Of a DNA stretch of 15,984 nt, positions 1 to 15,984 are shown piece by piece. Below the pieces are notes generated by a model. The model saw only the letters and a program-made list of their open reading frames with translations. It was not told the DNA's origin and ran no database searches. This DNA is from Spirochaetota bacterium (GTDB lineage Bacteria; Spirochaetota; Spirochaetia; SZUA-6). The translations under genes and the position numbers were made by a program. The stretch spans positions 1 through 15,984 of the forward strand of contig QNBI01000006.1 of the NCBI GenBank assembly GCA_003641675.1, given 5' to 3'. Each line of letters opens with the position of its first letter. Positions within the stretch are counted from its first letter, which is position 1.

Positions 1-594
1 ATGACAGTAAAAAAACAGGAACTCCCCGCATACGATCCACGAGCTTCTTACAGCCAGGCTCTTTGCTATGAAATGAGTAATAGGGGGGGGTGCCATCTTG
101 AAGGTGGTTATACTGCTATTAAAGATTACTGTGCAGGCTATGCTGAATGGCCCGGCGACCGTGTGGAAGGGACACCTTTAATTTCTAAAAATGCAACTTT
201 AACAAACACAGTGCTAGATATAATTGGTGCATGTGTTTATACATCAACTTCTATAAGTCTGGATGAATATTCACTGCTTATACATGCGGTTACCGGACTT
301 AATGTAAACGCTGGAATTCTCCAGCGTATTGCTCTAAGAACACTTGCCGTAGAAAGGATATTTAATACTGCCTGCAATATCACCGGTAGAGATGACTGGC
401 TTCCGGACAGATTCTACACCGAAGAAATTACTGCCAACAGAAAAAAACTCGTGCTTAATAGGGAAGTATTTGGCAAAATGCACATGGATTACTATCATGC
501 AATGGGATGGGATGATAACGGTAAGCCTGAAAATGAGACCCTAAATGCTCTAAAATTAGGAAAATACTTAAAAGAAATGGAGACTACGCTGTGA
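1..594 (+). CDS. Aldehyde:ferredoxin oxidoreductase (AOR family), C-terminal part, cut by the left window edge
   Basis: AOR-family enzymes hold a tungsto- or molybdo-bispterin cofactor and a 4Fe-4S cluster. They oxidise aldehydes to carboxylic acids and pass electrons to ferredoxin in the cytoplasm of anaerobes. The 197 residues visible match the C-terminal domain: D-P-R-A near residue 12, S-N-R-G-G-C-H near 26-32, V-L-D-I-I-G-A-C (71-78), and D-D-W-L-P-D-R-F-Y near 130. Cys78 sits where the family's last cluster-ligand cysteine is found. Full-length members are about 600 residues, so the ATG at base 1 is almost certainly an internal methionine and the gene begins outside the window. The stop codon overlaps the GTG start of the aldolase-like gene (GTGA), which implies co-translation. 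Oddity: the conserved N-R-G-G-C segment is encoded across eight consecutive G. Family assignment is firm; the aldehyde substrate is unknown. Confidence 0.88.
   Translation: MTVKKQELPAYDPRASYSQALCYEMSNRGGCHLEGGYTAIKDYCAGYAEWPGDRVEGTPLISKNATLTNTVLDIIGACVYTSTSISLDEYSLLIHAVTGLNVNAGILQRIALRTLAVERIFNTACNITGRDDWLPDRFYTEEITANRKKLVLNREVFGKMHMDYYHAMGWDDNGKPENETLNALKLGKYLKEMETTL
83..90 (+). repeat. G8 homopolymer inside the AOR coding sequence
   Basis: Eight consecutive G encode Arg-Gly-Gly of the conserved N-R-G-G-C-H stretch. The frame is open as given. A one-base slip would truncate the protein just before its Cys78 cluster ligand. Confidence 0.95.
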
Positions 595-2006
595 AAAAAA
601 AATCATTTGATTACGTATATAATAAACTGTACTCGATTGGCAGGGCAATATGCCGTGTTAATGGAAATAATACCCACAGCGGTAATCTATCTATGCGTGA
701 CCCCGAGGAAGACAACCTGTTTTATATTACATCGAGCGGTTCGCAATGCGGAGCCCTTGTGCCAACAGACATTGTTCCCTTAAAATTCAGTGAGGTGAGC
801 TGGGGAGATGCAAGGGCATCTACGGAATCTACAGAACACAGGAAAATACTACGGATTCCGAATTCAAATGCTGTAGTACATGCTCATTATATTAATGATA
901 CTGTTATTACATTTGATACCGAAAAGAATCATCTGTTTTTGCTTTACTCGGGTAAAGATGAGAAGGGCAGAGATGAATTTCTATTTATCCCTCTGGATCT
1001 GTATGGTTTATATATTGTGGACAGCGTTATAGTCGCAAGTTATCTGCAGCCTGTTGGATCACCTGAAATGGAAGAGAGAATACCTAAGTATTTAGCGGAT
1101 AATCAGTTAACCATTGTAAAAGGCCATGGGCCTTTTGCACGGGGATCATCGCCGGAGGATGCTTTTTATCGCTTAAGTGTATTGGAAAATAGTGCAGAAC
1201 TTATTCTTAATTTAAGAAGACGAGGACTTAATGTAACTAAACTTCAAAAGAAAATTAGAACTGAAGGCAAGGAAAAACTTCTGCCTTTTAAAATTCACAT
1301 TTTTGAAGATACTAATTTATCAGAGCGTGAAGTGCAGGATGAAACGGTAATTTTAGATTTTAAACAGAGGCTGAATTATAATTATGATCACTATATTGGC
1401 GCATACGGTACGGGTTCTATGAGCCAGAAAGTCTCTGCAGACGAGATGATATACTGTCCTATGTCTTCTGTACCGGAAGGACTTGACTTTCCTTTATACA
1501 GAAAAAAAATACAATTCGAAGAAAATGATGACACGGATTTAAAACTTCATAAATTAATATATCAGAATACAGTCCAGAATACATGTATGATTACCGCGAA
1601 TGCTCTTGCCACTTCGGAAGGTATGGTTGTTTTGGCAGAAAAATATGGGCTTTCTGTGCTCTATGAGGAAAACGATAAAGTTTCTTATAAGCCGGAAGAT
1701 CATCCTGTTGTAACACCTATAGATGCAGAGGCTATTTATCTAAATCCACGGCTCGGTCTTGTTGATATTTTCCGATTAAAGGATATGACACCCAACAATC
1801 CGATACTTAATATGCTGAGATGGTATAAAGGATGTTGTATTGTTGCAGGTTACGGTGTTGTTTCTACTGGCGATACAACTCTGGAACAGGCAGCTCATAA
1901 TGCATCGTCTGCAGAGAGAATAGCCCGTTTTCGAACAGAGGTTTACATTAACCATAAGCTGCTGGGTGGGCCTTCCATAGAGGATTTTGAATTAAAAACG
2001 CTTTAG
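591..2006 (+). CDS. Two-domain class II aldolase/adducin-like protein, second domain without metal ligands
   Basis: Class II aldolases of the FucA/AraD fold use a zinc ion held by one Glu and three His to cleave or epimerise sugar phosphates. The N-terminal half (about 1-215) has the motifs: G-N-N-T-H-S-G-N-L-S (25-34), I-T-S-S-G (46-50), E-x3-H at 79-83, A-V-V-H-A-H (94-99) and V-K-G-H-G (176-180). Predicted ligands are Glu79, His97, His99 and His179. The C-terminal half (about 255-471) repeats the fold, but the H-A-H position reads T-A-N (335-337) and the G-H-G position reads G-Y-G (420-422), so it is probably structural or regulatory. The start is GTG inside the AOR stop codon, with GGAG eight bases upstream. 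Single-domain aldolases are about 215 residues, so 471 fits a duplication. Lactaldehyde- or glycolaldehyde-releasing chemistry would suit the neighbouring AOR and FucU-like genes, but substrate is not shown. Confidence 0.82.
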   Translation: MKKKSFDYVYNKLYSIGRAICRVNGNNTHSGNLSMRDPEEDNLFYITSSGSQCGALVPTDIVPLKFSEVSWGDARASTESTEHRKILRIPNSNAVVHAHYINDTVITFDTEKNHLFLLYSGKDEKGRDEFLFIPLDLYGLYIVDSVIVASYLQPVGSPEMEERIPKYLADNQLTIVKGHGPFARGSSPEDAFYRLSVLENSAELILNLRRRGLNVTKLQKKIRTEGKEKLLPFKIHIFEDTNLSEREVQDETVILDFKQRLNYNYDHYIGAYGTGSMSQKVSADEMIYCPMSSVPEGLDFPLYRKKIQFEENDDTDLKLHKLIYQNTVQNTCMITANALATSEGMVVLAEKYGLSVLYEENDKVSYKPEDHPVVTPIDAEAIYLNPRLGLVDIFRLKDMTPNNPILNMLRWYKGCCIVAGYGVVSTGDTTLEQAAHNASSAERIARFRTEVYINHKLLGGPSIEDFELKTL

Positions 2007-2019
2007 GGGTTTAGGAATT

Positions 2020-2796
2020 ATGAATAATAAAAAAGTATATACAGAAGAAAAGAAGAATATCGGTATTATTATTTTAAATAATCCGGAAAAAAATAACACT
2101 TTCGATGTGGAATTAGCTGTTCAGCTTAATGAGGCTCTTCTGGAATTCGAAAACAAAAAGAGTATTCGTGTTGTTATAGTTAAGGCAGAGGGTAAAAATT
2201 TCTCCATGGGTATATCATTGGATGAGTTTAAAGACAAAACTCACAGAGAATATACGGAATTTATTAGACTTATGGACAAACATAACCATACTATTGCAGA
2301 GATGAAAAAACCTGTAATTGCATCGGTACAGGGGTATGCTGTAGCTAATGGTGCTGGTTTGGTTTTTGCAAGTGATCTTGCTGTAGCGGGTGAAAGTGCT
2401 AAAATTGGTACTACCGCTATTAATGTAGGTTTAATATGTTTAGGTCCTGCGTCTCCTCTTGTAAGGCTTGTTGGTAGAAAGAAAGCTCTTGAAATGATAC
2501 TAACTGGGGAAATATTAACAGCCCAAGAGGCTAAAGAACTCGGTCTTATAAACAGGGTGGTTCCCGATACTGAATTAGAAAATGAAACACTAAAATTAGC
2601 GGAACTGCTTGCTTCAAAAAGTCCATTTGCCCTTATGGCCGGGAAGCGTGGTATTTATGCTTTACAGGATGTTTCCTACCATGAAGGAATAGATTATATG
2701 TCTGAGCTTTTTGCTGGGTTATGCGCTACCGAGGATGCAGAAGAGGGTGTAAAGGCTTTTATTGAAAGAAGAAAACCTTTATGGAAAATGAAATAA
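2020..2796 (+). CDS. Crotonase-fold protein (enoyl-CoA hydratase/isomerase family, ECHDC3-like), catalytic Glu pair absent
   Basis: This 258-residue protein has the normal length and order of the crotonase fold: the first oxyanion-hole segment N-F-S-M-G-I-S-L (60-67), the second G-Y-A-V-A-N-G-A-G (105-113), and the C-terminal helices. Lined up by eye with rat mitochondrial enoyl-CoA hydratase, Glu144 falls on Gly113 and Glu164 on Ala133, so ordinary hydration of enoyl-CoA is unlikely. The I-N-V-G-L-I-C stretch (134-140) with the following R-K-K-A-L-E-M-I-L-T-G-E resembles the ECHDC3 subgroup. It begins 13 bases after the aldolase-like gene, behind TTAGGA, and is in the same operon. No CoA-ligase, thiolase or acyl-CoA dehydrogenase lies in the window, so its CoA substrate, if any, is unexplained. 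Fold is confident, reaction is not. Confidence 0.8.
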   Translation: MNNKKVYTEEKKNIGIIILNNPEKNNTFDVELAVQLNEALLEFENKKSIRVVIVKAEGKNFSMGISLDEFKDKTHREYTEFIRLMDKHNHTIAEMKKPVIASVQGYAVANGAGLVFASDLAVAGESAKIGTTAINVGLICLGPASPLVRLVGRKKALEMILTGEILTAQEAKELGLINRVVPDTELENETLKLAELLASKSPFALMAGKRGIYALQDVSYHEGIDYMSELFAGLCATEDAEEGVKAFIERRKPLWKMK

Positions 2797-2840: not shown

Positions 2841-3275
2841 ATGTTAAAAGGAATACCTAACATTTTATCACCGGACTTATTAAAGATACTAATGGAAATG
2901 GGACATGGTAATGAACTTGTAATAGGGGACGGCAACTTTCCGGCTGCATCGTATGCCCAGAGGCTTATCAGGCTGGACGGCCACAATGTCCCTGAAGTTC
3001 TGGATGCTGTTCTAAAGTTCTTTCCACTGGATACTTTTGTGAAAACTCCCGTTGCCGTGATGTCGGTTGTACCGGGTGATTCTACAAAACCGGAACGTTA
3101 CGATGACTTTAAAAATCTGGTAAAGAAGTATAATCCGGATTTTAAAGATTTTGAGTATGTAGAGAGGTTCGACTTTTACGAAAGAACAAAAAAAGCTTAT
3201 GCAGTAATAGCAACAAGCGATCTTGCTCTATATGCCTGTATAATCCTTAAAAAAGGTGTTTTAACGTCTCAATAG
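2841..3275 (+). CDS. Sugar mutarotase, FucU/RbsD family
   Basis: FucU/RbsD proteins interconvert alpha and beta anomers of free sugars (L-fucose, D-ribose and others) as they enter the cell. The 144-residue protein follows FucU along its length: M-L-K-G-I near the start, L-S-P-D-L-L-K-I-L-M-E-M-G-H-G (9-23) with the family's catalytic His at 22, Asp30, F-P-A (33-35), F-Y-E-R-T-K-K-A-Y-A-V (112-122) and I-L-K-K-G-V (135-140). FucU usually has D-A-H-F-P-A; here it reads D-G-N-F-P-A, a change near the sugar site that may alter specificity. An AGGGGG ribosome-binding site lies eight bases before the ATG. It is the last gene of the AOR-aldolase-crotonase unit and stops 6 bp from the GRE stop codon on the other strand. 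It implies that a free cyclic sugar enters this pathway. Confidence 0.85.
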   Translation: MLKGIPNILSPDLLKILMEMGHGNELVIGDGNFPAASYAQRLIRLDGHNVPEVLDAVLKFFPLDTFVKTPVAVMSVVPGDSTKPERYDDFKNLVKKYNPDFKDFEYVERFDFYERTKKAYAVIATSDLALYACIILKKGVLTSQ

Positions 3276-3281
3276 CCGATT

Positions 3282-5699
3282 TTAGTTATTCATCTCAAAT
3301 TTCATACGTTCTATAACATCATTCTGTAGTTCTTTATTTAATGGGGTGAAAAATGCACTGTAGCCTGCTATCCTTACCATAAGGTCGCGGTACTGCTCCG
3401 GCTTTTTTTGAGCGTCTCTAAGAGTTTCATCATCTACAACGTTAAACTGAATATGGTACTGGAAATTATTAAAATGCGTTTTAACTAATGCAAGAACACG
3501 TTTTCTTCCTTCCGGGGTTTTAAGTGTTTCCGGTGTAAGACGCATATTAAAAATTGAACCTTTTTGGAACCAAATGCTTGGAAGTTTACCCTCTGAATTG
3601 ATAGTCGCTGTCGGACCGTGTTTTTCGGAGCCGTTTGTTGGTGAAACTCCATTATTGACAGGTTCGGTGGCTTTTTTGCCGTCAGGAAGAGCACCTACGG
3701 ATTTGCCAAATGCAACATTTCCTGTAACAGAACTCTGGCTAAGGGCAAATGTAGCCGGAATAGGACCTTTCCCATAACGGGAACTTTTAAACTCTTTCTG
3801 ATAGGTTGAACCGAGATATTCGCTTATTTCTACCATCCATTTGTCTGCGTAATCATCATCGTTTCCAAATTTTGGAGCTTTATTTAAGAGAAGGTTGCGT
3901 ATTTCTTCTCCTGTAGGTGAAGTAGTATCATCTTCGAAATTAGTTTTTAGAGCATGCATAAGCTGTTCTGCGGTAAGTATTTTTTTGTCGAATAGTACAT
4001 ATTCTATTGCTGCAAATGAATTACCTGCCGTAACTGCTCCGGCAACCGGCCCGCCGTCTGCGGTATAGATAGCCCCGCCTTCAATAAGGGATTTTCCTCT
4101 TTCAATACAGTCATGAACCAGAGAAGAACGAAAAGCATTCTGGTCGTGCAAAATATGCATTTCATCGCTAATATGTTCTGTTATAACCTGCAAGGTCATA
4201 TAATAGTGAAGCTGCTTTTTAAATGCATTCATTATTTCTCTGGTGTTTTTAAAAGTTGTAAGATCACCGTCACCGGGCAAAAGTGTAATTCCCGTATTTG
4301 GATCTTTGCCGTTATTTATCGTCATTTCAAAAATTTTTCCTACATTAAGCCACGATCCTTTTGCTGCAAAGTCCCATTTTCCGGGGATTGATGCTTCGAT
4401 ACAACCAACCGGCGCCCATCCATATTGGTCTTCTTTTTTAATTCCCATATTGTTTAAAATACGCATAACTCCAAGATCATTGTAAAGTGCCGGTTGGCCG
4501 CCTTTGTGTTGTTCAATGACCTGGAGGGCTCTGTCCATAAATTCATCACTTGTCCCGGGAAACCATTTTAGAGAAACAGAAGGTTTTGCCAACTTTAAAT
4601 CGGCTGTTGAGTCCAAAATAACATATGTCAAATCATTTACTGCATCCTTACCGTCTGCAGTTTGTCCTCCAATGGCAAGATTTTCGGCGAGATGATAACC
4701 GGGGAAATACTCGCTATCCGGCCATGAACGTAATTTATTAATCTCATTGGCTTTAATAAAGAATGATTCAACTATTTCAAGTGCTTTTTCTCTGTTAATT
4801 ATTTTATTTTCAATATCGTGCTTATAATAAGGCCATAAATACTGATCGAAACGGCCAAGTGAAATTGCATGCCCATTTGTCTCTATCTGTAGTATTAATT
4901 GAATAAACCATACTGTCTGTACTGCCTGCCAGAAAGTCTGGGCGGGATTAGCAGGCACCTGCCTGCAGTTGGCAGCCATTTCAATAAGTTCTTTTCTCCT
5001 AGTGAAATCCGTGCAGGTTTTTGCTTCTTTGTCTAGAAGTTCTGCAAAACGGTTTGCAAAATTAATAACAGCTTCATTCGCAGTAATTACTGCCTGTAAA
5101 AACCAGTACTGGTTAATAGTGCCGGGTTCGGTTAAATCCAGCAGTTGTATTCTCTTTTTAGCTTTGTCAATAACATAGTTAAGCCCATGTTTTAATACCA
5201 TTTCATGGTCAGGAAGGACATTCCCAAGTCCAGCAGCAGCACACCACGTGTCATCTATTGCATTGATCTCCCAAGCAGTTTTTGCCTCCTCTGGAAGCTG
5301 ACTCCATATATTTTTAAATAAAGTTTTGTCCTCCCAGTAATCGATGGTGTTGAGAATTTTCTTTTTCGTATCTTCGGTATAGGTAAACTGATCGCATGGC
5401 CTTTCAGAAAAATGATAAGGGTTACCTTGAAATTCTTTAACGATCCAATCAACAGAATATTCAGGAAAGACAGGAGCTCCTCTAACAGTACTGGCCTGGT
5501 TTCCTACAATAAGCTCTCCGTCACGAACAAAAATGGTCATTTTATCAAGAACTTCATAGAGCGATTGCGCTCTTCTCTTTACAATAGGTTTCCCCTCGGT
5601 TTTTTTCATAGATTCTGTAAAGATAACAGCTCTTTCCGGGCATATCTCCGGTATCTTTTCTATTAGACCTTCTCTGAGTTTTTGAATCCTCGTATTCAT
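3282..5699 (-). CDS. Glycyl radical enzyme of the PflD/dehydratase-like group, substrate unassigned
   Basis: Glycyl radical enzymes hold a protein radical that generates a thiyl on an active-site Cys, which starts C-O, C-N, C-C or C-S cleavage without oxygen or B12. Length (805) is typical. The glycyl loop R-I-A-G-Y-S-A-F-F is at 776-784 (Gly779), and the active-site loop G-C-I-E-A at 432-436 (Cys433, Glu435). The C-x-E pair is shared by eliminating and decarboxylating GREs and differs from the Cys-Cys of pyruvate formate-lyase. Compared by eye with Clostridium butyricum glycerol dehydratase (His164, His281, Ser282, Asp447), this protein has Asn160, His277, Ala278 and Lys447. It is therefore not a standard diol dehydratase; the choline-lyase, hydroxyproline, isethionate and anhydrosugar-phosphate groups remain open. 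The ATG has AAGGGGG five bases upstream. It is transcribed away from the LacI-family gene, with an operator between, and its activase lies in that divergent unit. Confidence 0.9.
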   Translation of the reverse strand: MNTRIQKLREGLIEKIPEICPERAVIFTESMKKTEGKPIVKRRAQSLYEVLDKMTIFVRDGELIVGNQASTVRGAPVFPEYSVDWIVKEFQGNPYHFSERPCDQFTYTEDTKKKILNTIDYWEDKTLFKNIWSQLPEEAKTAWEINAIDDTWCAAAGLGNVLPDHEMVLKHGLNYVIDKAKKRIQLLDLTEPGTINQYWFLQAVITANEAVINFANRFAELLDKEAKTCTDFTRRKELIEMAANCRQVPANPAQTFWQAVQTVWFIQLILQIETNGHAISLGRFDQYLWPYYKHDIENKIINREKALEIVESFFIKANEINKLRSWPDSEYFPGYHLAENLAIGGQTADGKDAVNDLTYVILDSTADLKLAKPSVSLKWFPGTSDEFMDRALQVIEQHKGGQPALYNDLGVMRILNNMGIKKEDQYGWAPVGCIEASIPGKWDFAAKGSWLNVGKIFEMTINNGKDPNTGITLLPGDGDLTTFKNTREIMNAFKKQLHYYMTLQVITEHISDEMHILHDQNAFRSSLVHDCIERGKSLIEGGAIYTADGGPVAGAVTAGNSFAAIEYVLFDKKILTAEQLMHALKTNFEDDTTSPTGEEIRNLLLNKAPKFGNDDDYADKWMVEISEYLGSTYQKEFKSSRYGKGPIPATFALSQSSVTGNVAFGKSVGALPDGKKATEPVNNGVSPTNGSEKHGPTATINSEGKLPSIWFQKGSIFNMRLTPETLKTPEGRKRVLALVKTHFNNFQYHIQFNVVDDETLRDAQKKPEQYRDLMVRIAGYSAFFTPLNKELQNDVIERMKFEMNN

Positions 5700-5711
5700 A
5701 GAAACCCCCTT

Positions 5712-5727
5712 ATGAAAACGCTTTCAT
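5712..5727. promoter_or_regulatory. LacI-family operator in front of the GRE gene
   Basis: The near-palindrome ATGAAAACGCTTTCAT is centred on CG, as LacI/PurR/CcpA-type sites are. It also fits the CcpA cre consensus TGWAARCGYTWNCW. It starts 11 bp downstream of the predicted -10 of the GRE promoter, so bound repressor would block initiation or elongation. The adjacent LacI-family gene and two related copies (5880-5895, 9202-9217) make the local regulator the likely ligand. Confidence 0.8.
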
Positions 5728-5738
5728 AATATATTTAT

Positions 5739-5913: not shown

Positions 5914-6939
5914 TTGACAAAATATACAATTACAGAGATCGCAGAGATGTGTAATACATCCCCTACGACAGTATCTCGTGTACTAAATAACCCTAAATTA
6001 GTTGCAGAGCCTTTAAGGTCTAGAATACAGGACAAAATGAAAGAAGTTGGTTACAAACCAAATCCGTTTGCTTCCAGGTTAAGTTCTAAATCTAAGTGGG
6101 GCTTGGCACTCTTTGTATTTGATATTCTAAATCCTTTTTTTGCTCTAATTATGCGTAAAATAAGTCATTTAGCCATGCAACACGGTATCCCATTAACTGT
6201 TTGCGACACAGAGAATAATAGAGAAAAAGAAATGATATATCTTGACTATCTTCTAGATAACAAAATCGGGGGAATAATATTTGCGGAAGGTATATCAATA
6301 GAGACAATAGAAAGGGCTCTGAAATACACAGAGACAGTACTGATAGACCGGCAATTTAAGGAAGGCGTTGTTTCGGAAGTAACAAGCGATAATTATAATG
6401 GAGGTCGACAGGCAACTGAATACCTTCTGCAGCTAAACCACAAGAATATCGGATTTATAGCAGGACCGGATAAATGGCCATCCGCGGAAGAACGTTTACG
6501 CGGATATTGCGATGCTCTAAAAGCACGTGACATACCAATAAAGAAGGAACTAATTTTCCATGGAGATTTACGCTTTGAATCGGGAATTAGGGCTATGGAG
6601 TATTTTTTAACTCTGCCGAAATGGCCGACAGCAATTTTTAGCGCTAATGATCAGATGGCATTTGGCGTAATGAGTAAGGCAAGAATCTTGAACATATCTA
6701 TACCGGAGGATCTTTCTATTGTCGGGTTCGACAATATTCCATTTAACAATTTTTATGATACAAAACTAACTTCTGTGGAACAAGATATTCAAGCCTTGTG
6801 CAACAGCGCTTTTGACATAATGCTTAGGAAACTCGACAATAGATTAAAAGAAAATGGGGTAAGAAGAATTATAGTTCCGACAAAACTAAAAATAGGCGAA
6901 ACATGTCGTAAACTTATTGGAAAGGTTAATGGCTTATAA
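5914..6939 (+). CDS. LacI-family transcriptional regulator
   Basis: A 341-residue regulator with an N-terminal helix-turn-helix (I-T-E-I-A-E-M, then S-P-T-T-V-S-R-V-L-N-N-P at 16-27), a hinge near 45-60, and a periplasmic-binding-protein-like sensor domain to the C terminus. The sensor domain includes W-P-T-A-I-F-S-A-N-D-Q-M-A and I-V-G-F-D-N-I-P-F, typical of sugar-sensing LacI/GalR members. The start is TTG at 5914: AAGGA lies seven bases upstream and the HTH begins at the proper distance. Its stop codon lies within the start region of the activase gene, so the two are probably translated together. Three operator-like palindromes in the window place the GRE, its own unit and the importer under its likely control. 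Effector unknown; a sugar or pathway intermediate is the natural guess. Confidence 0.92.
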   Translation: MTKYTITEIAEMCNTSPTTVSRVLNNPKLVAEPLRSRIQDKMKEVGYKPNPFASRLSSKSKWGLALFVFDILNPFFALIMRKISHLAMQHGIPLTVCDTENNREKEMIYLDYLLDNKIGGIIFAEGISIETIERALKYTETVLIDRQFKEGVVSEVTSDNYNGGRQATEYLLQLNHKNIGFIAGPDKWPSAEERLRGYCDALKARDIPIKKELIFHGDLRFESGIRAMEYFLTLPKWPTAIFSANDQMAFGVMSKARILNISIPEDLSIVGFDNIPFNNFYDTKLTSVEQDIQALCNSAFDIMLRKLDNRLKENGVRRIIVPTKLKIGETCRKLIGKVNGL

Positions 6940-7879
6940 CATTTCAAAAAATTCTACCAGTACATCCGTAAAGTACGCTAATGTTTTCGAAATAGAGCGT
7001 TATGCAACAAAAGATGGACCCGGTATTAGAACCGTTGTTTTTTTTAAGGGCTGTAATTTAAAATGTATATGGTGTCAGAATCCGGAATCACAACTTATGA
7101 AACCGGAAGTTATGTATTCGAAAGAACAATGTGCAGGATGTCGAAAGTGTATATTTGCATGTCCTAATGGTTCTGTAGAAGAAATCCCCCCCCTTGGTTT
7201 TATAAGTAATCATAATACTTGTATTTTATGCGGCGCATGTGTAGATGCGTGTTTCTATGATGCTCGTAGAATTGTGGGTAAAAAATATACAATTGAAAGC
7301 ATAATGGAAGAAATTCTTAAAGATAAGGCTTTTTATGATAATTCTGGGGGTGGTGTTACTTTTTCGGGAGGCGAACCTTTACTGCAGCATAGGGCAGTTT
7401 TAGAATTGGCAAGCAGGTGTAAAAGTATGGGCATTCATACTGCTCTGGAAACAGCTGGCCATGTTGACTGGACTGTTTTTAATGAAATAATTCCGAATAT
7501 GGATTTAATATTTTATGATGTAAAGCATATAGATGAAAAATTACACAAAGAGTATACAGGGGTTTCCAACAGGCTCATTTTGCAAAATTTGCAGAAATTG
7601 AGCATGCATTTTGATAATATTGTAGTTAGAATACCAATAATACCAAAGGTAAACAACACACTGGATGTACAGAGAAAAATATATCATTTCCTTTTAGAAT
7701 CTACGAGAGTGAAGACTGTAGAACTTCTCCCCTTTCATAGGCTGGGTGCAGCCAAATATAGTGGCCTGGGCCGGGTTTATAAAATGGGAACTGCAAAAAA
7801 CCTGCATAAAGAAGACTGTCGTCCTTTTGCAGAGGAGGCAAGCAAATTGGGTTTAAATGTTCGTATTGGTGCAGTATAG
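6929..7879 (+). CDS. Glycyl-radical enzyme activating enzyme (radical SAM, two extra 4Fe-4S clusters)
   Basis: This radical-SAM protein installs the glycyl radical on a partner GRE by abstracting hydrogen with a 5'-deoxyadenosyl radical. From the ATG at 6929 (316 residues) the SAM-cluster motif C-x3-C-x2-C is at Cys42, Cys46 and Cys49 after D-G-P-G-I-R. A ferredoxin-like insert has Cys68/71/74/78 and Cys98/101/104/108, the usual mark of GRE activases other than the pyruvate formate-lyase one. S-G-G-G-V-T-F-S-G-G-E-P-L follows. The ATG overlaps the regulator gene by 11 bp; GGAAAGG lies close upstream. A TTG at 6917 would add four residues and cannot be excluded. The GRE is on the opposite strand about 1.2 kb away, so enzyme and activase come from divergent promoters that share operators. 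Oddity: a C8 run lies between the two ferredoxin motifs. Confidence 0.92.
   Translation: MAYNISKNSTSTSVKYANVFEIERYATKDGPGIRTVVFFKGCNLKCIWCQNPESQLMKPEVMYSKEQCAGCRKCIFACPNGSVEEIPPLGFISNHNTCILCGACVDACFYDARRIVGKKYTIESIMEEILKDKAFYDNSGGGVTFSGGEPLLQHRAVLELASRCKSMGIHTALETAGHVDWTVFNEIIPNMDLIFYDVKHIDEKLHKEYTGVSNRLILQNLQKLSMHFDNIVVRIPIIPKVNNTLDVQRKIYHFLLESTRVKTVELLPFHRLGAAKYSGLGRVYKMGTAKNLHKEDCRPFAEEASKLGLNVRIGAV
7186..7193 (+). repeat. C8 homopolymer inside the GRE activase gene
   Basis: Eight consecutive C lie between the two ferredoxin-type cysteine clusters, where the protein reads E-I-P-P-L. A one-base slip would remove the second cluster and the rest of the radical-SAM domain. Confidence 0.95.
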
Positions 7880-7881
7880 AA

Positions 7882-8473
7882 GTGAAAGGAATTGAACTTT
7901 CCAGGCATTATTACAAAAGGGTTGTAATGCCGGCGTTTTCTAAAAGGTATCGCCCGTTTATCAATTCTATGGCCTTCGGACTAATAGGGCCCGGTTCAGA
8001 ATGTTATGGTTACGGGCCGGTAAAGGGTTTTGATGGAAAATCCCAAAGAGACGGGATTACTTCTGTTCCGGCCTTTTTTAAACGTTTTCTTGGATTTAAT
8101 CGGCTGCATAATACTATAAAAGAATGGCTTTCAATAAAAGAGGAAATGCTTTCCGTATGTACAAATGGAGAAGTTTTTGATGATTTTAAAGCGGATTTAC
8201 CGCCTTTTCTATAAATGGGAGTATCGTGCTTTAAGAAAGCTTGGGGATTTAGGTGAAAACTTGTATAAAAAATTAGTAGCCGTTTCTGTTTCTAATACAA
8301 AAGAAACCGTGTTTAGCAATATTAAAAAAATTGTAGCGATTCTAATAAACGAAATAATTAAACTTGGGCTTAAGTTTAAAAGAAATGGAATATTTCTGCA
8401 GAACTGCGGATTTTCTATAGAGGAAAGCATAGATAATAAGATATTAAGAAGCGTTAAAGGCTATATTGAGTAG
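7882..8473 (+). pseudogene. Decayed DUF4037-family gene (two internal deletions, one frameshifting)
   Basis: DUF4037 proteins have a nucleotidyltransferase-like N-terminal part of unknown role and often neighbour or fuse to DUF4125. The first frame (7882-8214, GTG start two bases after the activase stop) keeps the family start, F-G-L-I-G-P-G-S-E-C-Y-G-Y, then jumps to D-G-K-S-Q-R-D-G and F-F-K-R-F-L-G. The D-H-D-W-G-P-G type segment expected between these, the putative metal-binding motif, is missing. After T-N-G-E-V-F-D-D the frame runs to a stop at 8214. The family's C-terminal segment, L-F-Y-K-W-E-Y-R-A-L-R-K-L-G, resumes in the +2 frame near 8196 and continues to 8473. The residues that normally separate these parts are gone. 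This points to a non-functional relic, based on family motifs recalled from memory. A short remodelled protein is less likely. Confidence 0.72.
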
Positions 8474-8486
8474 AGGAGAAAAAAGT

Positions 8487-9038
8487 ATGAAAAAATGCGG
8501 TAAGGATACAATAGAAAAAATTATTAAACTGGAAAAAGAGATGTTTATAAGAGTACCTACGAGAAATAATCCGCCATGCAGAGAGGATATAGAAGCTTTT
8601 AAAATTCATAGGAAAAGCCAATTTTCTGTTTGGTCGGAAAAAACTTGCCAGAGTTATATGAAAGATCTCATTGAAGCAGAATTCAAAGGGGATAATTTAA
8701 TGACATTAAAATATGCAAGAATGGATAATTTAATTCTTTCTCCATCGGGAAATGTTCTAATAGGTAGAATAATTAGTCAGTTTATAGAATGGCAGAAAGA
8801 GGTTATAGATGAATATCCTAATGTAATGAAAGGTGCAAGGGATATAGATGGTTTTGCTAAATACCTAAAAGCTGAAATGCAAACATATTCGGATAAAACA
8901 ATTGAATATCTCTGGGGTGATGTTAAATCATATATTAAAGAAGGCTCTAATATGTCTTTGGAATTATACAAGGCTCTTGCTAATTTGGCTGGATATAAAA
9001 CACTTAAAGATATGGAATCTGCTTTGAAATCAAAATAA
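8487..9038 (+). CDS. DUF4125-family protein, function unknown
   Basis: This 183-residue protein has the features of DUF4125: L-E-K-E-M-F near the start, P-C-R-E-D-I-E-A-F-K-I-H-R-K-S-Q-F (about 34-50), W-S-E, and L-M-T-L-K-Y-A-R-M. No signal peptide or membrane segment is visible, so it should be cytoplasmic. The biochemical role of the family is unknown. The ATG at 8487 is preferred over an in-frame TTG at 8466 because GAGGAG lies eight bases before it and the TTG has no ribosome-binding site. It follows the DUF4037 remnant, its usual partner, and is still open, which suggests it is retained or that decay is recent. It ends the regulator-activase unit; an importer promoter follows. Confidence 0.75.
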   Translation: MKKCGKDTIEKIIKLEKEMFIRVPTRNNPPCREDIEAFKIHRKSQFSVWSEKTCQSYMKDLIEAEFKGDNLMTLKYARMDNLILSPSGNVLIGRIISQFIEWQKEVIDEYPNVMKGARDIDGFAKYLKAEMQTYSDKTIEYLWGDVKSYIKEGSNMSLELYKALANLAGYKTLKDMESALKSK

Positions 9039-9201: not shown

Positions 9202-9217
9202 ATGAAATCGTTTTCAT
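9202..9217. promoter_or_regulatory. LacI-family operator of the importer operon
   Basis: ATGAAATCGTTTTCAT is a near-perfect palindrome with the same ATGAAA...TTTCAT arms and CG centre as the sites flanking the LacI-family gene. Lying at about +2 to +17, it would give direct repression of the importer. Confidence 0.8.
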
Positions 9218-10384: not shown

Positions 10385-11086
10385 ATGTTACGGATTTTTA
10401 AAAAAATACGGATCTGTATCTTTATTTTGATTGTTTCGTTTCTAATTATTGACGCATGTACAATAAAAAAAATAAACGAAGTCGATAAAAATAAAAGTAA
10501 AGATAAATATTCCACATGGACAAAAAGCGGAAAAAAGTTTGACCCTGTGGAGTATGTTAATAGTATCTGGAGTACAAAACTAATACCTGAATTTAGAACT
10601 AAATCTACCGATATAAAGTTGGTTTTAAGTGCGTTAAAAAAAGACAGAAAAAATGGTATTAAATTGTATGGCCGTATAAGGAAATTCGGTGGAACTAGTG
10701 CCGCGTTTAGAGTAAAGGGTAAGGCTAAAGTATTAAAATATGACAATAGTTCTATGAATGGGTTATTACTTCTTGACTTATTGCCGCCGGATGGCAAAAA
10801 GGATTTAGATTTGCAGGTAGGACCCGTTATTCGGCAAACAGCGATAAGGGATTCGGCAGATTTTATAACTTTTACTGATGTTGGTAATCAGTTGCAGTTT
10901 GCAAGCCTGGCAGATGAACTTAATAATCGTATAAAAAAGGAAGTAATTAAACCTTTGGATCTTGAACATATTGCAGGGGAAACAATTTCTTTTTTGGGCG
11001 CTTTTAAATTGGAAGAATCCGATAGTATAGATGATATTGCAATAACTCCAATAGAAATTAAAGTTGTTAAAACAATCGCAAAGTAA
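10385..11086 (+). CDS. DUF2291-family lipoprotein linked to sugar importers
   Basis: A 233-residue protein with an N-terminal hydrophobic segment (about 9-23) ending in I-I-D-A-C at Cys25. This reads as a relaxed lipobox, so it is probably a lipoprotein. The body matches DUF2291: F-D-P-V-E-Y-V-N-S-I-W, S-A-A-F-R-V-K-G-K-A-K-V, V-G-P-V-I-R-Q-T-A-I-R-D, and F-I-T-F-T-D-V-G-N-Q-L-Q-F. Such proteins are commonly encoded inside ribose-type ABC importer operons, but their role is unknown. GGGAG lies eight bases upstream of the ATG. It lies between the binding-protein and ATPase genes, the usual place for this family. A surface or assembly role in uptake is inferred from context only. Confidence 0.82.
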   Translation: MLRIFKKIRICIFILIVSFLIIDACTIKKINEVDKNKSKDKYSTWTKSGKKFDPVEYVNSIWSTKLIPEFRTKSTDIKLVLSALKKDRKNGIKLYGRIRKFGGTSAAFRVKGKAKVLKYDNSSMNGLLLLDLLPPDGKKDLDLQVGPVIRQTAIRDSADFITFTDVGNQLQFASLADELNNRIKKEVIKPLDLEHIAGETISFLGAFKLEESDSIDDIAITPIEIKVVKTIAK

Positions 11087-11095
11087 GGTAATATT

Positions 11096-12649
11096 ATGAA
11101 AGAAAATAGCAGTTTTCCTCTAATGGAAGCTAAAAACATTAGAAAGGTTTTCCCTGGGACTACTGCCCTGCATAATGTGGATTTTAAAATATTCAAGGGT
11201 AAGGTTAATGCACTTGTAGGAGAAAATGGTGCAGGTAAATCTACACTTATGAAAATTATTGCAGGAATAGAAAAACCTACCTCTGGAACACTCTATATGT
11301 ACGACAGTAAAGGAGAGGCGGAAGAGGTCTCGTTTAATTCTACCAGAGATGCTGTTAGAAAAGGTATTGGTATTGTTCATCAGGAACTTAATCTTTTTTC
11401 CAATCTTGATGTAGCAGAAAATATTTTCATGAATAAGGAAATTAATAGGTACGGTTCATTATATATTGACCATAAAAGCCAGTATGAAAAATCAAAGGAA
11501 ATTCTGCATAAACTCGGGCAGAATATAAATCCTAGTACCATAGTTAGGGATTTGCGCTTAGGACAACAACAAATAGTCGAAATTGCAAAAACCATGATTG
11601 AAGATCCCAAAATACTTATTATGGATGAACCAACCTCTTCTTTAAGTATTCAGGAAGTACAGGTTTTATTTAACGTAATTTCAGATTTAAAAAAGCATGG
11701 GGTAGCTGTTGTCTATATTTCACATCGTCTTGAGGAGATAAAAGAAATTGGAGATTATATCACTATTTTAAGAGATAGCAAGCTTGTAGATTTCGGTGAA
11801 GTAAAACAAATGGAAATGAAGGATATAATAGAAAAAATGGTGGGACGTGATCCTAATAAATTTTTTACCGGACAAGCACATATTTCCGGAAAAGAGCTTT
11901 TACGTATAAAAAATATGACTTTACCGAGATATGGCGGCGGTTTTACCTTTGAGAATATTAGTTTTTCCGTTAAAGAAGGGGAAATACTTGGTATATATGG
12001 TCTTATGGGTGCTGGAAGAACAGAACTGCTTGAAAGTATAATGGGTATAAATGAAAATGCAACAGGTGAAATATGGCTCGAAGGTAAAAGATTAGATAAT
12101 AAGGATACAAAGCAGCGAATACAACATGGACTTGTATTAATTCCTGAAGATAGGCAGCGTGAGGGGCTTTTTACAAACCTTTCTGTCGCAATGAATCTAA
12201 CCATGTCTAGCATTAAGAGGTTTTTAAAAGGTTTCCATATTATAAAAAGGCTGGAAGAAAAACATGTACATGAGGTAATTGATGAAATGGGCATTAAAGT
12301 TTCTTCACCGGATGTCTCTGTAAACGCCTTAAGCGGGGGGAATCAGCAAAAAGTTGTAATTGGAAAGGGATTATTAACTCAACCTAAGGTTCTGTTAATG
12401 GACGAGCCCACAAGAGGAATCGATGTTGGTGCAAAATCGGATGTGTTTGAGATTATGAACCGTATGGCAAATGAGAAATTCGGTGTAATTTTTGTTTCTT
12501 CAGAATTGGAAGAGATATTTTCTATGTCGGATAGAATAATTGTACTATCAAAAGGTAAAATAACAGGAGAATTTGACCGTTCGAAAGCAACAGAAGAGGA
12601 AATCAGGAAGGTGTCAGAAATTGGGCACGGAATTACTGCAACAGCATAA
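11096..12649 (+). CDS. Sugar ABC importer ATP-binding protein with two ATPase domains (RbsA-like)
   Basis: This cytoplasmic ATPase of 517 residues is built of two fused nucleotide-binding domains, as in RbsA/XylG/MglA. Domain 1 has Walker A G-E-N-G-A-G-K-S-T (42-50), signature L-R-L-G-Q-Q-Q and Walker B I-L-I-M-D-E-P-T-S-S. Domain 2 has the degenerate Walker A G-L-M-G-A-G-R-T usual for this class, a proper signature L-S-G-G-N-Q-Q and L-L-M-D-E-P-T-R-G-I-D-V-G. The shorter first signature and the Lys-less second P-loop are normal for the family. The ATG is preceded by TAAGG at seven bases and follows the DUF2291 gene by nine bases. It pairs with the permease gene downstream. Confidence 0.95.
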   Translation: MKENSSFPLMEAKNIRKVFPGTTALHNVDFKIFKGKVNALVGENGAGKSTLMKIIAGIEKPTSGTLYMYDSKGEAEEVSFNSTRDAVRKGIGIVHQELNLFSNLDVAENIFMNKEINRYGSLYIDHKSQYEKSKEILHKLGQNINPSTIVRDLRLGQQQIVEIAKTMIEDPKILIMDEPTSSLSIQEVQVLFNVISDLKKHGVAVVYISHRLEEIKEIGDYITILRDSKLVDFGEVKQMEMKDIIEKMVGRDPNKFFTGQAHISGKELLRIKNMTLPRYGGGFTFENISFSVKEGEILGIYGLMGAGRTELLESIMGINENATGEIWLEGKRLDNKDTKQRIQHGLVLIPEDRQREGLFTNLSVAMNLTMSSIKRFLKGFHIIKRLEEKHVHEVIDEMGIKVSSPDVSVNALSGGNQQKVVIGKGLLTQPKVLLMDEPTRGIDVGAKSDVFEIMNRMANEKFGVIFVSSELEEIFSMSDRIIVLSKGKITGEFDRSKATEEEIRKVSEIGHGITATA

Positions 12650-12673: not shown

Positions 12674-13753
12674 ATGGCAGCTGAAGTTAAGAAAAATGCA
12701 AATATCGGATTTTCATTGGGAATGCTTGTTTTAAAATTAAGAACATTAATTGCATTCTTTGCCGTTATGATAGTTTTTGCAATTATTGCACCAAATTTTT
12801 TATCTATCGGAAATTTAATAGAAATGGCAAAACATTCTGCGATTTGGGCGATACTGGCAATGGGCATGGCTTATGTAATAATTGGAGGAGGTATTGATCT
12901 TTCAGTTGGTTCTATTGCAGGTTTGTGCGGTATGCTGGCCGGGGGATTAATTGTAGAAGGTTTACAGCTTCCAGTATTTGGCATCGTAATTTATTTCCAT
13001 ACAATAATGATAATTTTAATTGTACTGCTTATAGGAGTTCTACTTGGTGCGATTAATGGGCTGTTCATTACAAAACTAAGTGTTGCACCTTTTATTGCAA
13101 CTTTAGGTATGCTTTATATGGCACGTGGTTTTGCTCTGTTACGCTCTGGCGGTAAAACTTTTCCCAATCTTGTAGGAAATCCTTCTCTTGGGAATACCGG
13201 GTTTCCATTTTTAGGAGCCGGATACATTCTCGGTCTTCCTGTAATTGTATGGCTTGCTGTTATAATTGCAGTAATAGCAGCATATGTATCTAAAAAAACA
13301 CCCCTCGGCAGGCATGTTTATGCTGTAGGAGGAAATGAAGATGCCGCCATTCTGTCCGGAATTCGAGTAGACAGAATAAAGATGTATACGTATATGTTTT
13401 CCGGCTTCACTGCGGCACTTGTCGGTCTCATTTTAGCTTCACAACTTGTGGCATCGCATCCCGCTACCGGAGAGAGTTACGAACTTACTGCAATCGCTGC
13501 AGTTGTTCTCGGAGGCACCTCTTTAAGTGGAGGGCGAGGTACAATCGGAGGTGCAATAATTGGCGCACTTATTCTCGGTGTTCTCAATGACGGTCTCGTT
13601 ATGGTTGGTGTTTCGTCTTTCTGGCAGATAGCAATCAAGGGAATGGTTGTCGTTCTGGCAGTCATTATAGACCAGTATCAACTTAAAAAACAGGATGAAG
13701 CGGCTCTGCGTGAGCAAGCAGTAAGTGATATTAATGGTACGGCTGCGGCGTGA
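12674..13753 (+). CDS. Sugar ABC importer permease (RbsC-like)
   Basis: An inner-membrane permease of 359 residues with about eight to ten hydrophobic segments and the family hallmark G-G-G-I-D-L-S-V-G-S near residue 71. Also typical are A-P-F-I-A-T-L-G-M-L-Y, G-R-H-V-Y-A-V-G-G-N-E-D-A-A and L-G-G-T-S-L-S-G-G-R-G-T near the last helices. A single permease gene implies a homodimer, as in ribose importers. The ATG at 12674 is the first possible start, because an in-frame TAA lies 12 bases upstream. The best ribosome-binding site, GGAGG, sits 14 bases before the ATG, an unusually long gap. It ends 11 bp before the convergent transketolase C-half gene, with no clear terminator between. Confidence 0.93.
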   Translation: MAAEVKKNANIGFSLGMLVLKLRTLIAFFAVMIVFAIIAPNFLSIGNLIEMAKHSAIWAILAMGMAYVIIGGGIDLSVGSIAGLCGMLAGGLIVEGLQLPVFGIVIYFHTIMIILIVLLIGVLLGAINGLFITKLSVAPFIATLGMLYMARGFALLRSGGKTFPNLVGNPSLGNTGFPFLGAGYILGLPVIVWLAVIIAVIAAYVSKKTPLGRHVYAVGGNEDAAILSGIRVDRIKMYTYMFSGFTAALVGLILASQLVASHPATGESYELTAIAAVVLGGTSLSGGRGTIGGAIIGALILGVLNDGLVMVGVSSFWQIAIKGMVVVLAVIIDQYQLKKQDEAALREQAVSDINGTAAA

Positions 13754-13764
13754 TCGATCTTTGG

Positions 13765-14709
13765 CTATTTTAATATTTTCTTAATTGTATTATATATGCC
13801 TTTTCTATCTATTCCATAATATGAACGGATTTGATCTCTCGGGCCTGCTTTAGAGAATTGTCCTTCTGTAATACCGAGACGGATAAAGTCTGTATCTAAT
13901 TTATTTTCTGCGATAATTTCCGCTGTAAGACTCCCGATTCCGCCGTGCAATGAATGTTCTTCCACAGTAACCACTTTTTTTGTTTTTAATATGGAATTTA
14001 AAATTCCATCTCGATCTAAAGGCCTTATTGAGGGAATATTTAAAAGTTCAACATCTATAGATTCCTTTTCGAGGTCCAGGGAAGCTTTATAAGCTTTGTT
14101 GACTAAAGAGCCTAGCGAAATAAGAGTAACATCGCTTCCATGTCTTAAGATATCAACTTTACCAGGTGTAAATCTGTACTCTTTGTTGTGTAAATAGGGA
14201 AAGAGACCGTTATCCATTCTAATATACATGGGACCCTTATTCTTAAGAGCATATAAAACTATCTGTTCTGTCTCCACAGGGTCCGAAGGGGCAAATATTT
14301 TAATGTTCCCCAATCCAAGCATTATTGAAATGTCATCTATTGCATAATGCGTGCTTCCTAAGGACCCGTATGCAACTCCTGCATTTAATCCGAACAGTTT
14401 TACATTCGTTTCGGAATAACAAACATCATTCTTAACCTGCTCATTCGAACGGGCAATTAGAAAAGGAGCGGCATTTGCAGTTACAGAAACATAACCACTT
14501 AAAGACAAACCGACAGATATGCCCACTAAATTCTGCTCTGCAATTCCGACATTTACAACTCGTTCTGGGTATAGTTCCTGAAATGGAGCAATCTTAGAGG
14601 TACTTGTTGAATCTCCGACTACTACTACAAGGTTTATACCCTCTTTTACCGCTTTTATAAATGTTTCTACCATAATATTGCGGAGGTCTGTTTTTTCGGA
14701 TACACCCAT
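13765..14709 (-). CDS. Transketolase C-terminal subunit (split transketolase)
   Basis: In two-subunit transketolases this half carries the pyrimidine-binding and C-terminal domains. It supplies the catalytic Glu that activates thiamine diphosphate bound by the N-subunit. From the ATG at 14709 (314 residues) the features are V-V-V-V-G-D-S-T (28-35), V-N-V-G-I-A-E-Q-N (52-60) with Glu58 as the predicted catalytic acid, D-I-S-I-M-L-G-L, I-F-A-P-S-D, R-M-D-N-G-L-F-P, and V-T-V-E-E-H-S near the C-terminal domain. The start overlaps the stop of the N-half by one base (TAATG). GAGGAG lies eight bases upstream inside the N-half gene, so the halves should be made in equal amounts. An upstream in-frame ATG at 14769 has no homology support. 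Substrate is unclear. Confidence 0.92.
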   Translation of the reverse strand: MGVSEKTDLRNIMVETFIKAVKEGINLVVVVGDSTSTSKIAPFQELYPERVVNVGIAEQNLVGISVGLSLSGYVSVTANAAPFLIARSNEQVKNDVCYSETNVKLFGLNAGVAYGSLGSTHYAIDDISIMLGLGNIKIFAPSDPVETEQIVLYALKNKGPMYIRMDNGLFPYLHNKEYRFTPGKVDILRHGSDVTLISLGSLVNKAYKASLDLEKESIDVELLNIPSIRPLDRDGILNSILKTKKVVTVEEHSLHGGIGSLTAEIIAENKLDTDFIRLGITEGQFSKAGPRDQIRSYYGIDRKGIYNTIKKILK

Positions 14710-15539: not shown

Positions 15540-15549
15540 AACAAATAAA

Positions 15550-15578
15550 ATATTATCGTAAAAAATAGTAAACGTCAA
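15550..15578 (-). promoter_or_regulatory. Predicted promoter of the split transketolase genes, with a very short leader
   Basis: On the minus strand, TTGACG (15578-15573), 17 bases, then TAATAT (15555-15550). Initiation six to seven bases later would fall about four bases before the ATG at 15539. The message would be nearly leaderless, in line with the missing ribosome-binding site. Confidence 0.55.
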
Positions 15579-15633
15579 CAAATATAATAGTAATAAATAG
15601 AAAATATAGAAAAGAAAAAGAAAAGTATGAATT

Positions 15634-15984
15634 TTATTCTGCGATAATAACTTTAACGCCTCTTTTTTCTAATTCTTTATGGATGGAATCGGGTATGTCT
15701 TTATCTGTTATAAGGTAATCTATCATTTCTGCTGGACCCAGCAATGCAAAGCAGATTTTACCTATCTTAGTAGAATCTGCAACAAGGTATACTTCGGTTG
15801 CAGACTCTATCATGGCTTGTTTTACAGCTATATCATTAAAACCGGGATATGTCAGCCCGTTGTCTGGCGAAATACCTCCGGCAGCAAGGAAGAGTTTATC
15901 AACATGGATATGGTCGAAAAAAGCTGCTGCCTTTTCCCCGGTCAGAGATAGGGTAGGGGCCTTAAAATCACCGCCTGTTACCAT
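15634..15984 (-). CDS. DeoR-family transcriptional regulator, C-terminal sensor part, cut by the right window edge
   Basis: The visible 116 residues are the C-terminal ligand-sensing domain of DeoR/GlpR-type regulators, which bind phosphorylated sugars. Markers are V-T-G-G-D-F-K-A-P-T-L-S-L-T-G-E-K-A-A, V-D-K-L-F-L-A-A-G-G-I-S, L-T-Y-P-G-F-N-D, K-Q-A-M-I-E-S-A and V-Y-L-V-A-D-S-T-K-I-G-K. The helix-turn-helix half (members are about 250 residues) lies outside the window, so the Met at the edge is internal. The gene points the same way as the split transketolase genes and sits 94 bp upstream of them, making it their likely regulator or operon neighbour. The short gap between holds the transketolase promoter but no clear terminator. 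Confidence 0.87.
   Translation of the reverse strand: MVTGGDFKAPTLSLTGEKAAAFFDHIHVDKLFLAAGGISPDNGLTYPGFNDIAVKQAMIESATEVYLVADSTKIGKICFALLGPAEMIDYLITDKDIPDSIHKELEKRGVKVIIAE

What the first reader, a model, noticed from the sequence alone, without database searches (positions are those of the whole stretch)
3282..5699. Glycyl radical enzyme with a non-standard active site in a sugar-import regulon
The enzyme has Cys433, Glu435 and Gly779, but the positions that hold substrate in glycerol/propanediol dehydratases differ (Asn160 for His164, Ala278 for Ser282, Lys447 for Asp447). It sits with a CUT2 importer, a mutarotase and an aldolase-like protein. No microcompartment shell gene, diol-dehydratase partner or alcohol/CoA-aldehyde dehydrogenase is visible. 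A GRE acting on an intact or phosphorylated sugar, or on a sugar-derived polyol or sulfonate, would be an unusual route. The residue comparison is by eye.
Basis: partly seen in the sequence, partly recalled or inferred. Interest (0 to 1): 0.72.

Follow-up and report, generated by a model that had tools for sequence, protein, structure and literature searches.

The report
New sugar-linked glycyl radical enzyme family
A spirochaete carries an oxygen-sensitive radical enzyme, switched on together with an importer for an apiose-like sugar, whose conserved active site matches no characterised relative checked here and so points to an unknown radical step in anaerobic sugar breakdown.

Summary
The 805-aa protein at 3282-5699(-) is a complete glycyl radical enzyme (GRE) with Cys433, Glu435 and Gly779. 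The three unusual residues (Asn160, Ala278, Lys447) are in all 104 aligned sequences above 50% identity; Asn160 and Lys447 are in none of 43 more distant GREs. These sequences form one clade with two branches: A (Spirochaetota, the window's) and B (Bacillota plus two spirochaetes). It lies on the YbiW side of the GREs, but YbiW is only 38% identical and its signature is absent.

A conserved LacI-type operator lies before the GRE and before the CUT2 importer. The only metabolic enzyme in that regulon is the GRE. The importer's binding protein is about 60% identical to a Rhizobium etli protein (recalled to bind D-apiose) and pairs with the branch-A GRE (11 of 13 genomes, 0 of 381 others). Next door are AptA/AptB-like transketolase genes, as in the E. 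coli D-apiose cluster. Two branch-B operons pair the GRE with a rhamnulokinase-like kinase and a class II aldolase, without an isomerase.

Best reading: a new GRE subfamily that cleaves a C-O bond of an imported, unphosphorylated, apiose-like compound upstream of kinase and aldolase or transketolase. The substrate is unproven.

The parts
3282..5699 (-). glycyl radical enzyme, 805 aa, branch A (N160, A278, D443, K447, C433, E435, G779)
5713..5726 (.). LacI-type operator TGAAAACGCTTTCA upstream of the GRE
   Evidence: exact match to TGAAANCGNTTTCA; 3 matches with up to 1 mismatch in the window against 0.10 expected; a site before the GRE in all 12 loci L002-L013 and in L078, L081
5881..5894 (.). 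second operator-like site (1 mismatch) just upstream of lacI
5914..6939 (+). LacI-family regulator, divergent from the GRE
   Evidence: divergent from the GRE in every branch-A locus read, with aldolase and/or DeoR genes between them in six
6917..7879 (+). GRE activating enzyme (radical SAM with ferredoxin-type clusters)
   Evidence: TIGR02494 347.5 bits over cut-off 174.35
7882..8473 (+). remnant of a DUF4037 protein, in two reading frames (relatives intact, about 300 aa)
8466..9038 (+). DUF4125 protein
9203..9216 (.). LacI-type operator TGAAATCGTTTTCA upstream of the importer operon
   Evidence: also before the importer gene in L003, L005, L006, L010, L011, L079, L080
9300..10265 (+). CUT2 sugar-binding protein, GRE-associated type, 60-62% identical to R. 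etli RHE_PF00037 (4ry0/5ibq)
10385..11086 (+). DUF2291 lipoprotein of the importer
   Evidence: the E. coli D-apiose cluster has a DUF2291 gene too
11096..12649 (+). CUT2 ATP-binding protein
12674..13753 (+). CUT2 permease
13765..14769 (-). transketolase C-terminal subunit, AptB-like
   Evidence: 52-54% identical to E. coli AptB; the own genome's only match at E <= 1e-30
14709..15581 (-). transketolase N-terminal subunit, AptA-like
   Evidence: 49% identical to E. coli AptA
15634..15984 (-). DeoR-family regulator fragment (window edge)
2841..3275 (+). FucU/RbsD-type sugar mutarotase, 70% identical to the one in the isomerase/kinase/transketolase module of G334
2020..2796 (+). enoyl-CoA hydratase/isomerase family protein
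591..2006 (+). class II aldolase/adducin domain protein, 471 aa
1..594 (+). aldehyde:ferredoxin oxidoreductase, C-terminal part (window edge)
   Evidence: an AOR also follows lacI at a GRE locus of G373 (L137)

Best explanation
It is a member of an apparently uncharacterised GRE subfamily on the YbiW side of the GRE tree. Steps: (1) a CUT2 importer takes up an intact sugar-like compound related to D-apiose (candidates: D-apiose itself, its alditol, an anhydro form or a small glycoside); (2) LacI releases GRE, activase and importer when that ligand is present; (3) the activase makes the Gly779 radical, Cys433 abstracts a hydrogen from a C-OH carbon, Glu435 takes the hydroxyl proton and a neighbouring C-O bond breaks, with Lys447/Asn160 doing the work of the His/Asp pair of the diol dehydratases, giving a carbonyl compound; (4) the product is phosphorylated by an FGGY kinase and split by a class II aldolase (branch B) or by separately regulated kinase/transketolase genes (branch A). 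Shown by computation: subfamily, invariant active-site signature, predicted regulon, pairing with its own importer, D-apiose-type neighbours. Inferred: unphosphorylated substrate, C-O cleavage, roles of Lys447/Asn160, position upstream of the kinase. Not shown: substrate and product.
For: Signature invariant in 104/104 sequences above 50% identity; N160, D443, A445 and K447 in 0/43 others. A (12 rows), B (11) and A+B each one side of a branch with SH-aLRT 100, 97 and 100. Operator TGAAANCGNTTTCA before GRE and importer and, in most loci, before lacI; 3-4 exact sites per genome in 7 of 7 genomes, reversed control 0 in six and 1 in one. The regulon so defined holds no kinase. The YbiW-type motif WGYRCTG (8 of 8 rows used) is WD[FY]AAKG in A+B. 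GRE-type binding protein (76-85% identical, own copy apart) in 11 of 13 genomes with a branch-A GRE and in none of the other 381 of the 394-genome draw. Window transketolase subunits 49% and 52-54% identical to AptA and AptB of the E. coli D-apiose cluster; strains carrying such a cluster grow on D-apiose (PMC13001218, passages read). The two branch-B operons (G323, G542) hold the same set GRE, activase, importer, rhamnulokinase-like kinase, FucA-like aldolase, lacI in different orders, with no isomerase among them; the isomerase of the branch-A genomes was not found in either genome.
Against: No substrate is known, and LacI binding is a sequence prediction. A GRE ketone formed next to the cleaved C-O bond would lack a hydroxyl that a DHAP-type class II aldolase needs, so the link to the branch-B aldolase is chemically awkward. 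Branch-B context rests on two loci. Branch B has no apiose-type importer (SBP 25-29% to the E. coli protein) and no AptB-like transketolase (best 33-36%), so an apiose-like substrate may be limited to branch A or be wrong. AptB matches of at least 45% are in only 5 of 13 branch-A genomes (several incomplete); the AptB-side genes beside the GRE in L006 and L010 are 41% and 39%. G334 has a full separate isomerase/kinase/transketolase module with its own importer, and G347 the isomerase, binding protein and transketolase on one contig, so the GRE is not simply the missing step of that route. The Sphaerochaeta locus L010 has an FSA-like gene about 6 kb from the GRE, which fits a YbiW-like route. 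The R. etli ligand is recalled; the 4ry0 title was cut off before the ligand and 5ibq was not listed.
Confidence: 0.48

Rival explanations
1. A YbiW-like lyase that opens an anhydro-sugar phosphate, with the kinase acting before the GRE.
For: Nearest characterised relative is YbiW (38% identity), solved with 1,5-anhydroglucitol-6-phosphate (title of 8id7). Spirochaete GREs of 36-40% identity sit with ROK-type kinases (my reading of the sequences) in L054, L055, L058, L059. Branch-B operons hold a kinase. An FSA-like gene (25% identity to the one in L053) lies at L010 18457-19095, about 6 kb from the branch-A GRE.
Against: The YbiW-type motif WGYRCTG, with its Arg, and His160/Ser278 are replaced in all 104 A+B sequences. 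No kinase in the predicted branch-A LacI regulon. In the window and 18 A/B loci tblastn with one ROK, one FSA and one PfkB protein found only that FSA-like gene and a remote ROK-family match in L004 at 22% identity.
Confidence: 0.17
2. A dehydratase of a small diol (1,2-propanediol, glycerol, ethylene glycol) formed downstream of the aldolase, as in fucose/rhamnose fermentation.
Against: His, Ser and Asp of the diol dehydratases are Asn, Ala, Lys in 104/104. No propanediol oxidoreductase, PduP-type dehydrogenase or shell protein among the Pfam-scanned window ORFs; the related loci were not searched for them. In branch A the operator sites lie before GRE, lacI and importer, not before the aldolase.
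Confidence: 0.12
3. A C-S or C-N lyase acting on a sulfonated or amino sugar, Lys447 holding an anionic leaving group.
For: GREs that cleave C-S and C-N bonds exist (7kq3, 5fau). The isomerase near some branch-A GREs is a remote relative of sulfoquinovose isomerase (109 bits against a cut-off of 700).
Against: Below the cut-offs of the sulfopropanediol and choline lyase models. No sulfonate genes recognised among the scanned window ORFs. That isomerase is also in 38 genomes without a branch-A GRE.
Confidence: 0.13
4. A radical isomerase that turns free D-apiose directly into D-apulose, standing in for ApsI.
For: YbiW chemistry applied to a hemiacetal would give the ketose; the Escherichia D-apiose cluster also lacks apsI (PMC13001218, passages); AptAB-like genes beside the window GRE.
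Against: 8 of 13 branch-A genomes also carry the sugar isomerase at E <= 1e-100; an ordinary isomerase needs no radical.
Confidence: 0.07

Closest known systems
YbiW / PflD, 1,5-anhydrohexitol-6-phosphate lyases (radical-mediated glycolysis)
   Same: GRE with sugar-derived substrate; YbiW is the nearest characterised sequence; both have the RYG[KR]GP loop near residue 640
   Different: 38% identity only; His160/Ser278/GYRCTG replaced by Asn160/Ala278/D[FY]AAKG; no PTS in the window; importer delivers an unphosphorylated ligand
B12-independent glycerol and 1,2-propanediol dehydratases
   Same: fold, Cys-Glu pair, glycyl radical, activase
   Different: His/Ser/Asp of the substrate site are Asn/Ala/Lys in all members; no diol-pathway partners in the window
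D-apiose catabolic cluster (aplK, aptA, aptB, CUT2 importer with DUF2291) of E. coli SE15 / Pectobacterium
   Same: importer with DUF2291 and split transketolase, homologous gene by gene (DUF2291 by family only)
   Different: the E. coli cluster has no GRE; here importer and GRE form their own LacI regulon
Rhizobium etli binding protein RHE_PF00037 (4ry0, 5ibq)
   Same: 57-62% identity to nine GRE-linked binding proteins, 70% to the paralogue in the isomerase module
   Different: 27 positions shared by R. etli and that paralogue differ invariantly in the nine GRE-linked proteins, so the ligand may differ

Membership tests
Glycyl radical enzyme superfamily | PFL-like and Gly_radical domains, active-site Cys, radical Gly, cognate activase | tested here: met
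YbiW (1,5-anhydroglucitol-6-phosphate lyase) | YbiW-type active-site signature (His160, Ser278, WGYRCTG) | tested here: not met
   all 104 A+B sequences have Asn160, Ala278, Ala445, Lys447
YbiW (1,5-anhydroglucitol-6-phosphate lyase) | activity on the 6-phosphate | not testable with these tools
   needs assay
Glycerol / 1,2-propanediol dehydratase | His164, Ser282, Asp447 (recalled numbering; seen in 9rco) | tested here: not met
   Asn160, Ala278, Lys447 aligned without gaps in these blocks
trans-4-hydroxyproline dehydratase, choline lyase, sulfopropanediol lyases, PflD | NCBIfam equivalog cut-offs | tested here: not met
   533/1100, 502/1050, 532 and 517/1000, 503/1109 bits
Pyruvate formate-lyase | TIGR01255 cut-off (994 bits) | tested here: not met
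   150 bits
Isethionate lyase | sulfonate-binding arginines | not tested
   no alignment with 7kq3 was printed
D-apiose catabolic gene cluster | AptA/AptB transketolase | tested here: met
   49% and 52-54% identity; homology only, activity untested
D-apiose catabolic gene cluster | AplK kinase | tested here: inconclusive
   a GlpK-like FGGY kinase beside the isomerase on own contig C437 is 36% identical to AplK
D-apiose catabolic gene cluster | growth on D-apiose | not testable with these tools
   needs culture

The most novel reading that the evidence does not exclude
A widespread GRE subfamily starts the anaerobic breakdown of free branched or furanose-type sugars (D-apiose or its alditol, anhydro or glycoside form) by a radical C-O cleavage on the unphosphorylated molecule, using a Lys/Asn pair as acid in place of the His/Asp pair: a first radical step upstream of any kinase, chemistry that I know of for no GRE.
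Probability: 0.35. Interest if true: 0.78.

Novelty: new variant of a known kind. Interest (0 to 1): 0.6.

Why it matters
GREs carry out hard anaerobic reactions, and newly assigned ones have opened pathways. This subfamily is defined by an invariant, unique pocket, spans Spirochaetota and Bacillota (one cluster alone stands for 1165 sequences), occurs in Sediminispirochaeta bajacaliforniensis (P0051) and comes with its own importer and regulator, so the substrate can be found by ligand screening of the binding protein. If it handles free sugars it would extend radical-mediated sugar breakdown beyond phosphorylated anhydrosugars.

Tried and rejected
Gene context in Bacillota could not be read: no loci from viral contigs; plasmid hits were all under 60% identity, best listed 36%. 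Literature: searches for GRE with YbiW + sugar, radical-mediated glycolysis, anhydroglucitol, class II aldolase + ABC transporter, rhamnulokinase, apiose, and similarity networks listed no paper whose title or abstract start assigns this subfamily; only open-licence papers are held, and PMC10176493, PMC9594981, PMC6384099 and the network papers were not opened, so a description in print is not excluded. Carter et al. and Ma et al. were not read; they are known from passages of PMC13001218 and PMC12441222. The PDB had no sequence match for the SftI-like isomerase. The binding-protein model was mediocre (mean pLDDT 61.5) and used only to look up titles. The GRE model has low confidence around 325-336 and 640-714, so those pocket parts rest on alignment alone. 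Two extra exact operator matches (own C288; G334 C1:393504) lie beside genes of other function and were not taken into the regulon. The idea that the GRE belongs to the isomerase module as such was dropped: 38 of 46 genomes with the isomerase at E <= 1e-100 have no branch-A GRE.

Full report
What is there. The window (own contig C6 of an assembly given as 81.8% complete; its close relatives are spirochaete MAGs) holds a full-length GRE gene at 3282-5699(-), 805 aa, with both GRE domains. It is the only PF02901 match in the held genome. Divergent from it run lacI, a GRE activase, a broken DUF4037 gene, DUF4125 and a CUT2 importer with DUF2291; beyond the importer, on the other strand, lie split transketolase genes and a DeoR fragment. 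On the GRE's other side lie FucU, an enoyl-CoA hydratase-like gene, a class II aldolase-like gene and the end of an aldehyde:ferredoxin oxidoreductase.

Active site. The printed alignment with a solved 1,2-propanediol dehydratase (9rco; function from the title) puts N160, A278, K447 opposite His, Ser, Asp. Of 13 loci found in genome contigs, 12 carry relatives of 75-82% identity (two of them cut by a contig end), all in records named as spirochaete MAGs; the thirteenth is a remote GRE of 30%. Protein searches with residues 128-175 gave 67 relatives for the window and 22 for the G542 protein. In an alignment of 147 GREs, 104 (the window, 14 loci, 89 database proteins, with near-copies among them) are above 50% identity to the window, and all 104 have N160, A278, W442, D443, A445, A446 and K447. 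The next is 41% identical. Of the 43 below, none has N160, D443, A445 or K447, 4 have A278, and 40 have His at 160.

Phylogeny. In a 65-row tree (quick method, SH-aLRT only) branch A (12 rows) and branch B (11) each form one side of a branch (100 and 97), A+B 100. A+B joins three GREs of G068 with support 92, inside a 39-row group (100) that also holds the clade with E. coli YbiW. YbiW is 38% identical. B comprises database proteins, two of them named as Bacillota (Lachnotalea glycerini P0020, Clostridiales COT073 P0002), P0006 with 1165 member sequences, and two spirochaetes. Branch A is patchy: in the window's order 2 of 26 genomes have it (own and G302), and the two other genomes of its genus do not.

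Regulon. A palindrome TGAAANCGNTTTCA lies at 5713-5726 and 9203-9216, with a one-mismatch copy at 5881-5894 (3 matches, 0.10 expected by shuffling, 0 of 200 shuffles reach 3). All 12 loci L002-L013 have 2-3 exact sites, as do the two genomes split over L078/L079 and L080/L081: one before the GRE in all; one before lacI in all but L006 and L010 (in some, inside the longest reading frame of lacI, whose true start is then further in); one before the importer gene in L003, L005, L006, L010, L011, L079 and L080. Genome-wide there are 3-4 sites per genome in 7 of 7 genomes searched; the reversed control gave 0 in six and 1 in one. In G334 the fourth site is beside an amidohydrolase-like gene, in the own genome the third is beside a tricarboxylate-transporter gene (my reading of the sequences). 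So the predicted LacI regulon is GRE, LacI, activase, DUF4037/DUF4125 and importer. The transketolase, DeoR, FucU, aldolase and AOR genes of the window have no such site.

Substrate class. The importer's binding protein is about 60% identical to R. etli RHE_PF00037, recalled as solved with D-ribose (4ry0) and D-apiose (5ibq). In a draw of 394 genomes of the class (two searches, taken to be the same draw), GRE-linked binding proteins (76-85%, and the own copy) occur in 11 genomes, all among the 13 with a branch-A GRE (one of these a partial gene; G373 and G449 lack the protein). A second group (49-61%) occurs in 20 genomes, in 12 of them on the same contig as the SftI-like isomerase with under 5 kb between. 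In G334 that second importer sits with isomerase, FucU (70% identical to the window's), GlpK-like kinase, split transketolase and DeoR (L139). The E. coli D-apiose cluster has importer, DUF2291, kinase and AptA/AptB; strains carrying it grew on D-apiose (growth of SE15 itself is not in the passages read). The window transketolase subunits are 49% (AptA) and 52-54% (AptB) identical to it, permease 50%, ATPase 45%, binding protein 41%. Beside the GRE in other genomes, AptA-like subunits are 48% (L002) and 47% (L010), AptB-side ones 39% (L010) and 41% (L006), AplK-like kinases 35-38% (L003, L006, L010). Other transketolases of the 15 genomes searched give 30-40% to AptB; 5 of the 13 branch-A genomes have a match of at least 45%. 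I infer that the GRE-linked importer carries a compound close to, but not identical with, what the D-apiose-type importer carries.

Branch B. G323 and G542 each have lacI, GRE, activase, three importer genes, a rhamnulokinase-like kinase and a FucA-like aldolase, in different orders. The SftI-like isomerase was found in neither. The seven small class II aldolases printed keep the Glu and His residues expected of an aldolase (motif recalled). Hence I place the GRE before the kinase. The weak point: GRE chemistry leaves a deoxy carbon next to the new carbonyl, which a DHAP aldolase would not accept unless the leaving group is the ring or glycosidic oxygen of a sugar carbon that keeps a second oxygen.

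Mechanism. By analogy with dehydratase GREs (recalled), Glu435 takes the proton of the hydroxyl at the radical carbon and His164/Asp447 help the leaving group. Here Lys447 is the candidate acid at that place, with Asn160 beside it; this is inference from aligned positions, not from a ligand-bound model.

Against. An FSA-like gene in L010, the kinase in branch B and the YbiW kinship keep the YbiW-like reading alive; branch B lacks the apiose-type genes; AptB likeness is uneven.

Verdict. A real, conserved GRE subfamily for which I found no assigned function, in a sugar-import regulon; new variant of a known kind; substrate open.

Noticed in passing
window 7882-8473: The DUF4037 gene is broken into two frames and shortened; relatives (L079, L011) have an intact gene of about 300 aa. 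No DUF4037 or DUF4125 gene lies between activase and importer in L003/L082 and L005, so it is dispensable.
   Followed up: partly
L137 (G373) 3029-5820: At a GRE locus of G373 an aldehyde:ferredoxin oxidoreductase follows lacI where the activase usually is; its relative ends at window 594. It may oxidise an aldehyde product.
   Followed up: no
L133, L135, L130, L078: A separate DeoR-linked CUT2 module with class II aldolase and (L133, L078) rhamnulokinase-like kinase but no isomerase in the stretch; would suit an imported ketose.
   Followed up: partly
L010 18457-19095(-): FSA-like aldolase gene beside the transketolase and kinase genes of a branch-A locus.
   Followed up: no
L054, L055, L058, L059: YbiW-like GREs next to what read as ROK kinases and ABC importers in spirochaetes: looks like an importer-plus-kinase version of the 1,5-anhydroglucitol route.
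   Followed up: no
L050, L052, L061: Other GREs (35-41%) with FGGY kinase and short-chain dehydrogenase genes, L050 with three GRE genes: probably further sugar/polyol GREs.
   Followed up: no
G361:C473:31903-34278: A GRE reading frame (39% identity) with one internal TGA.
   Followed up: no
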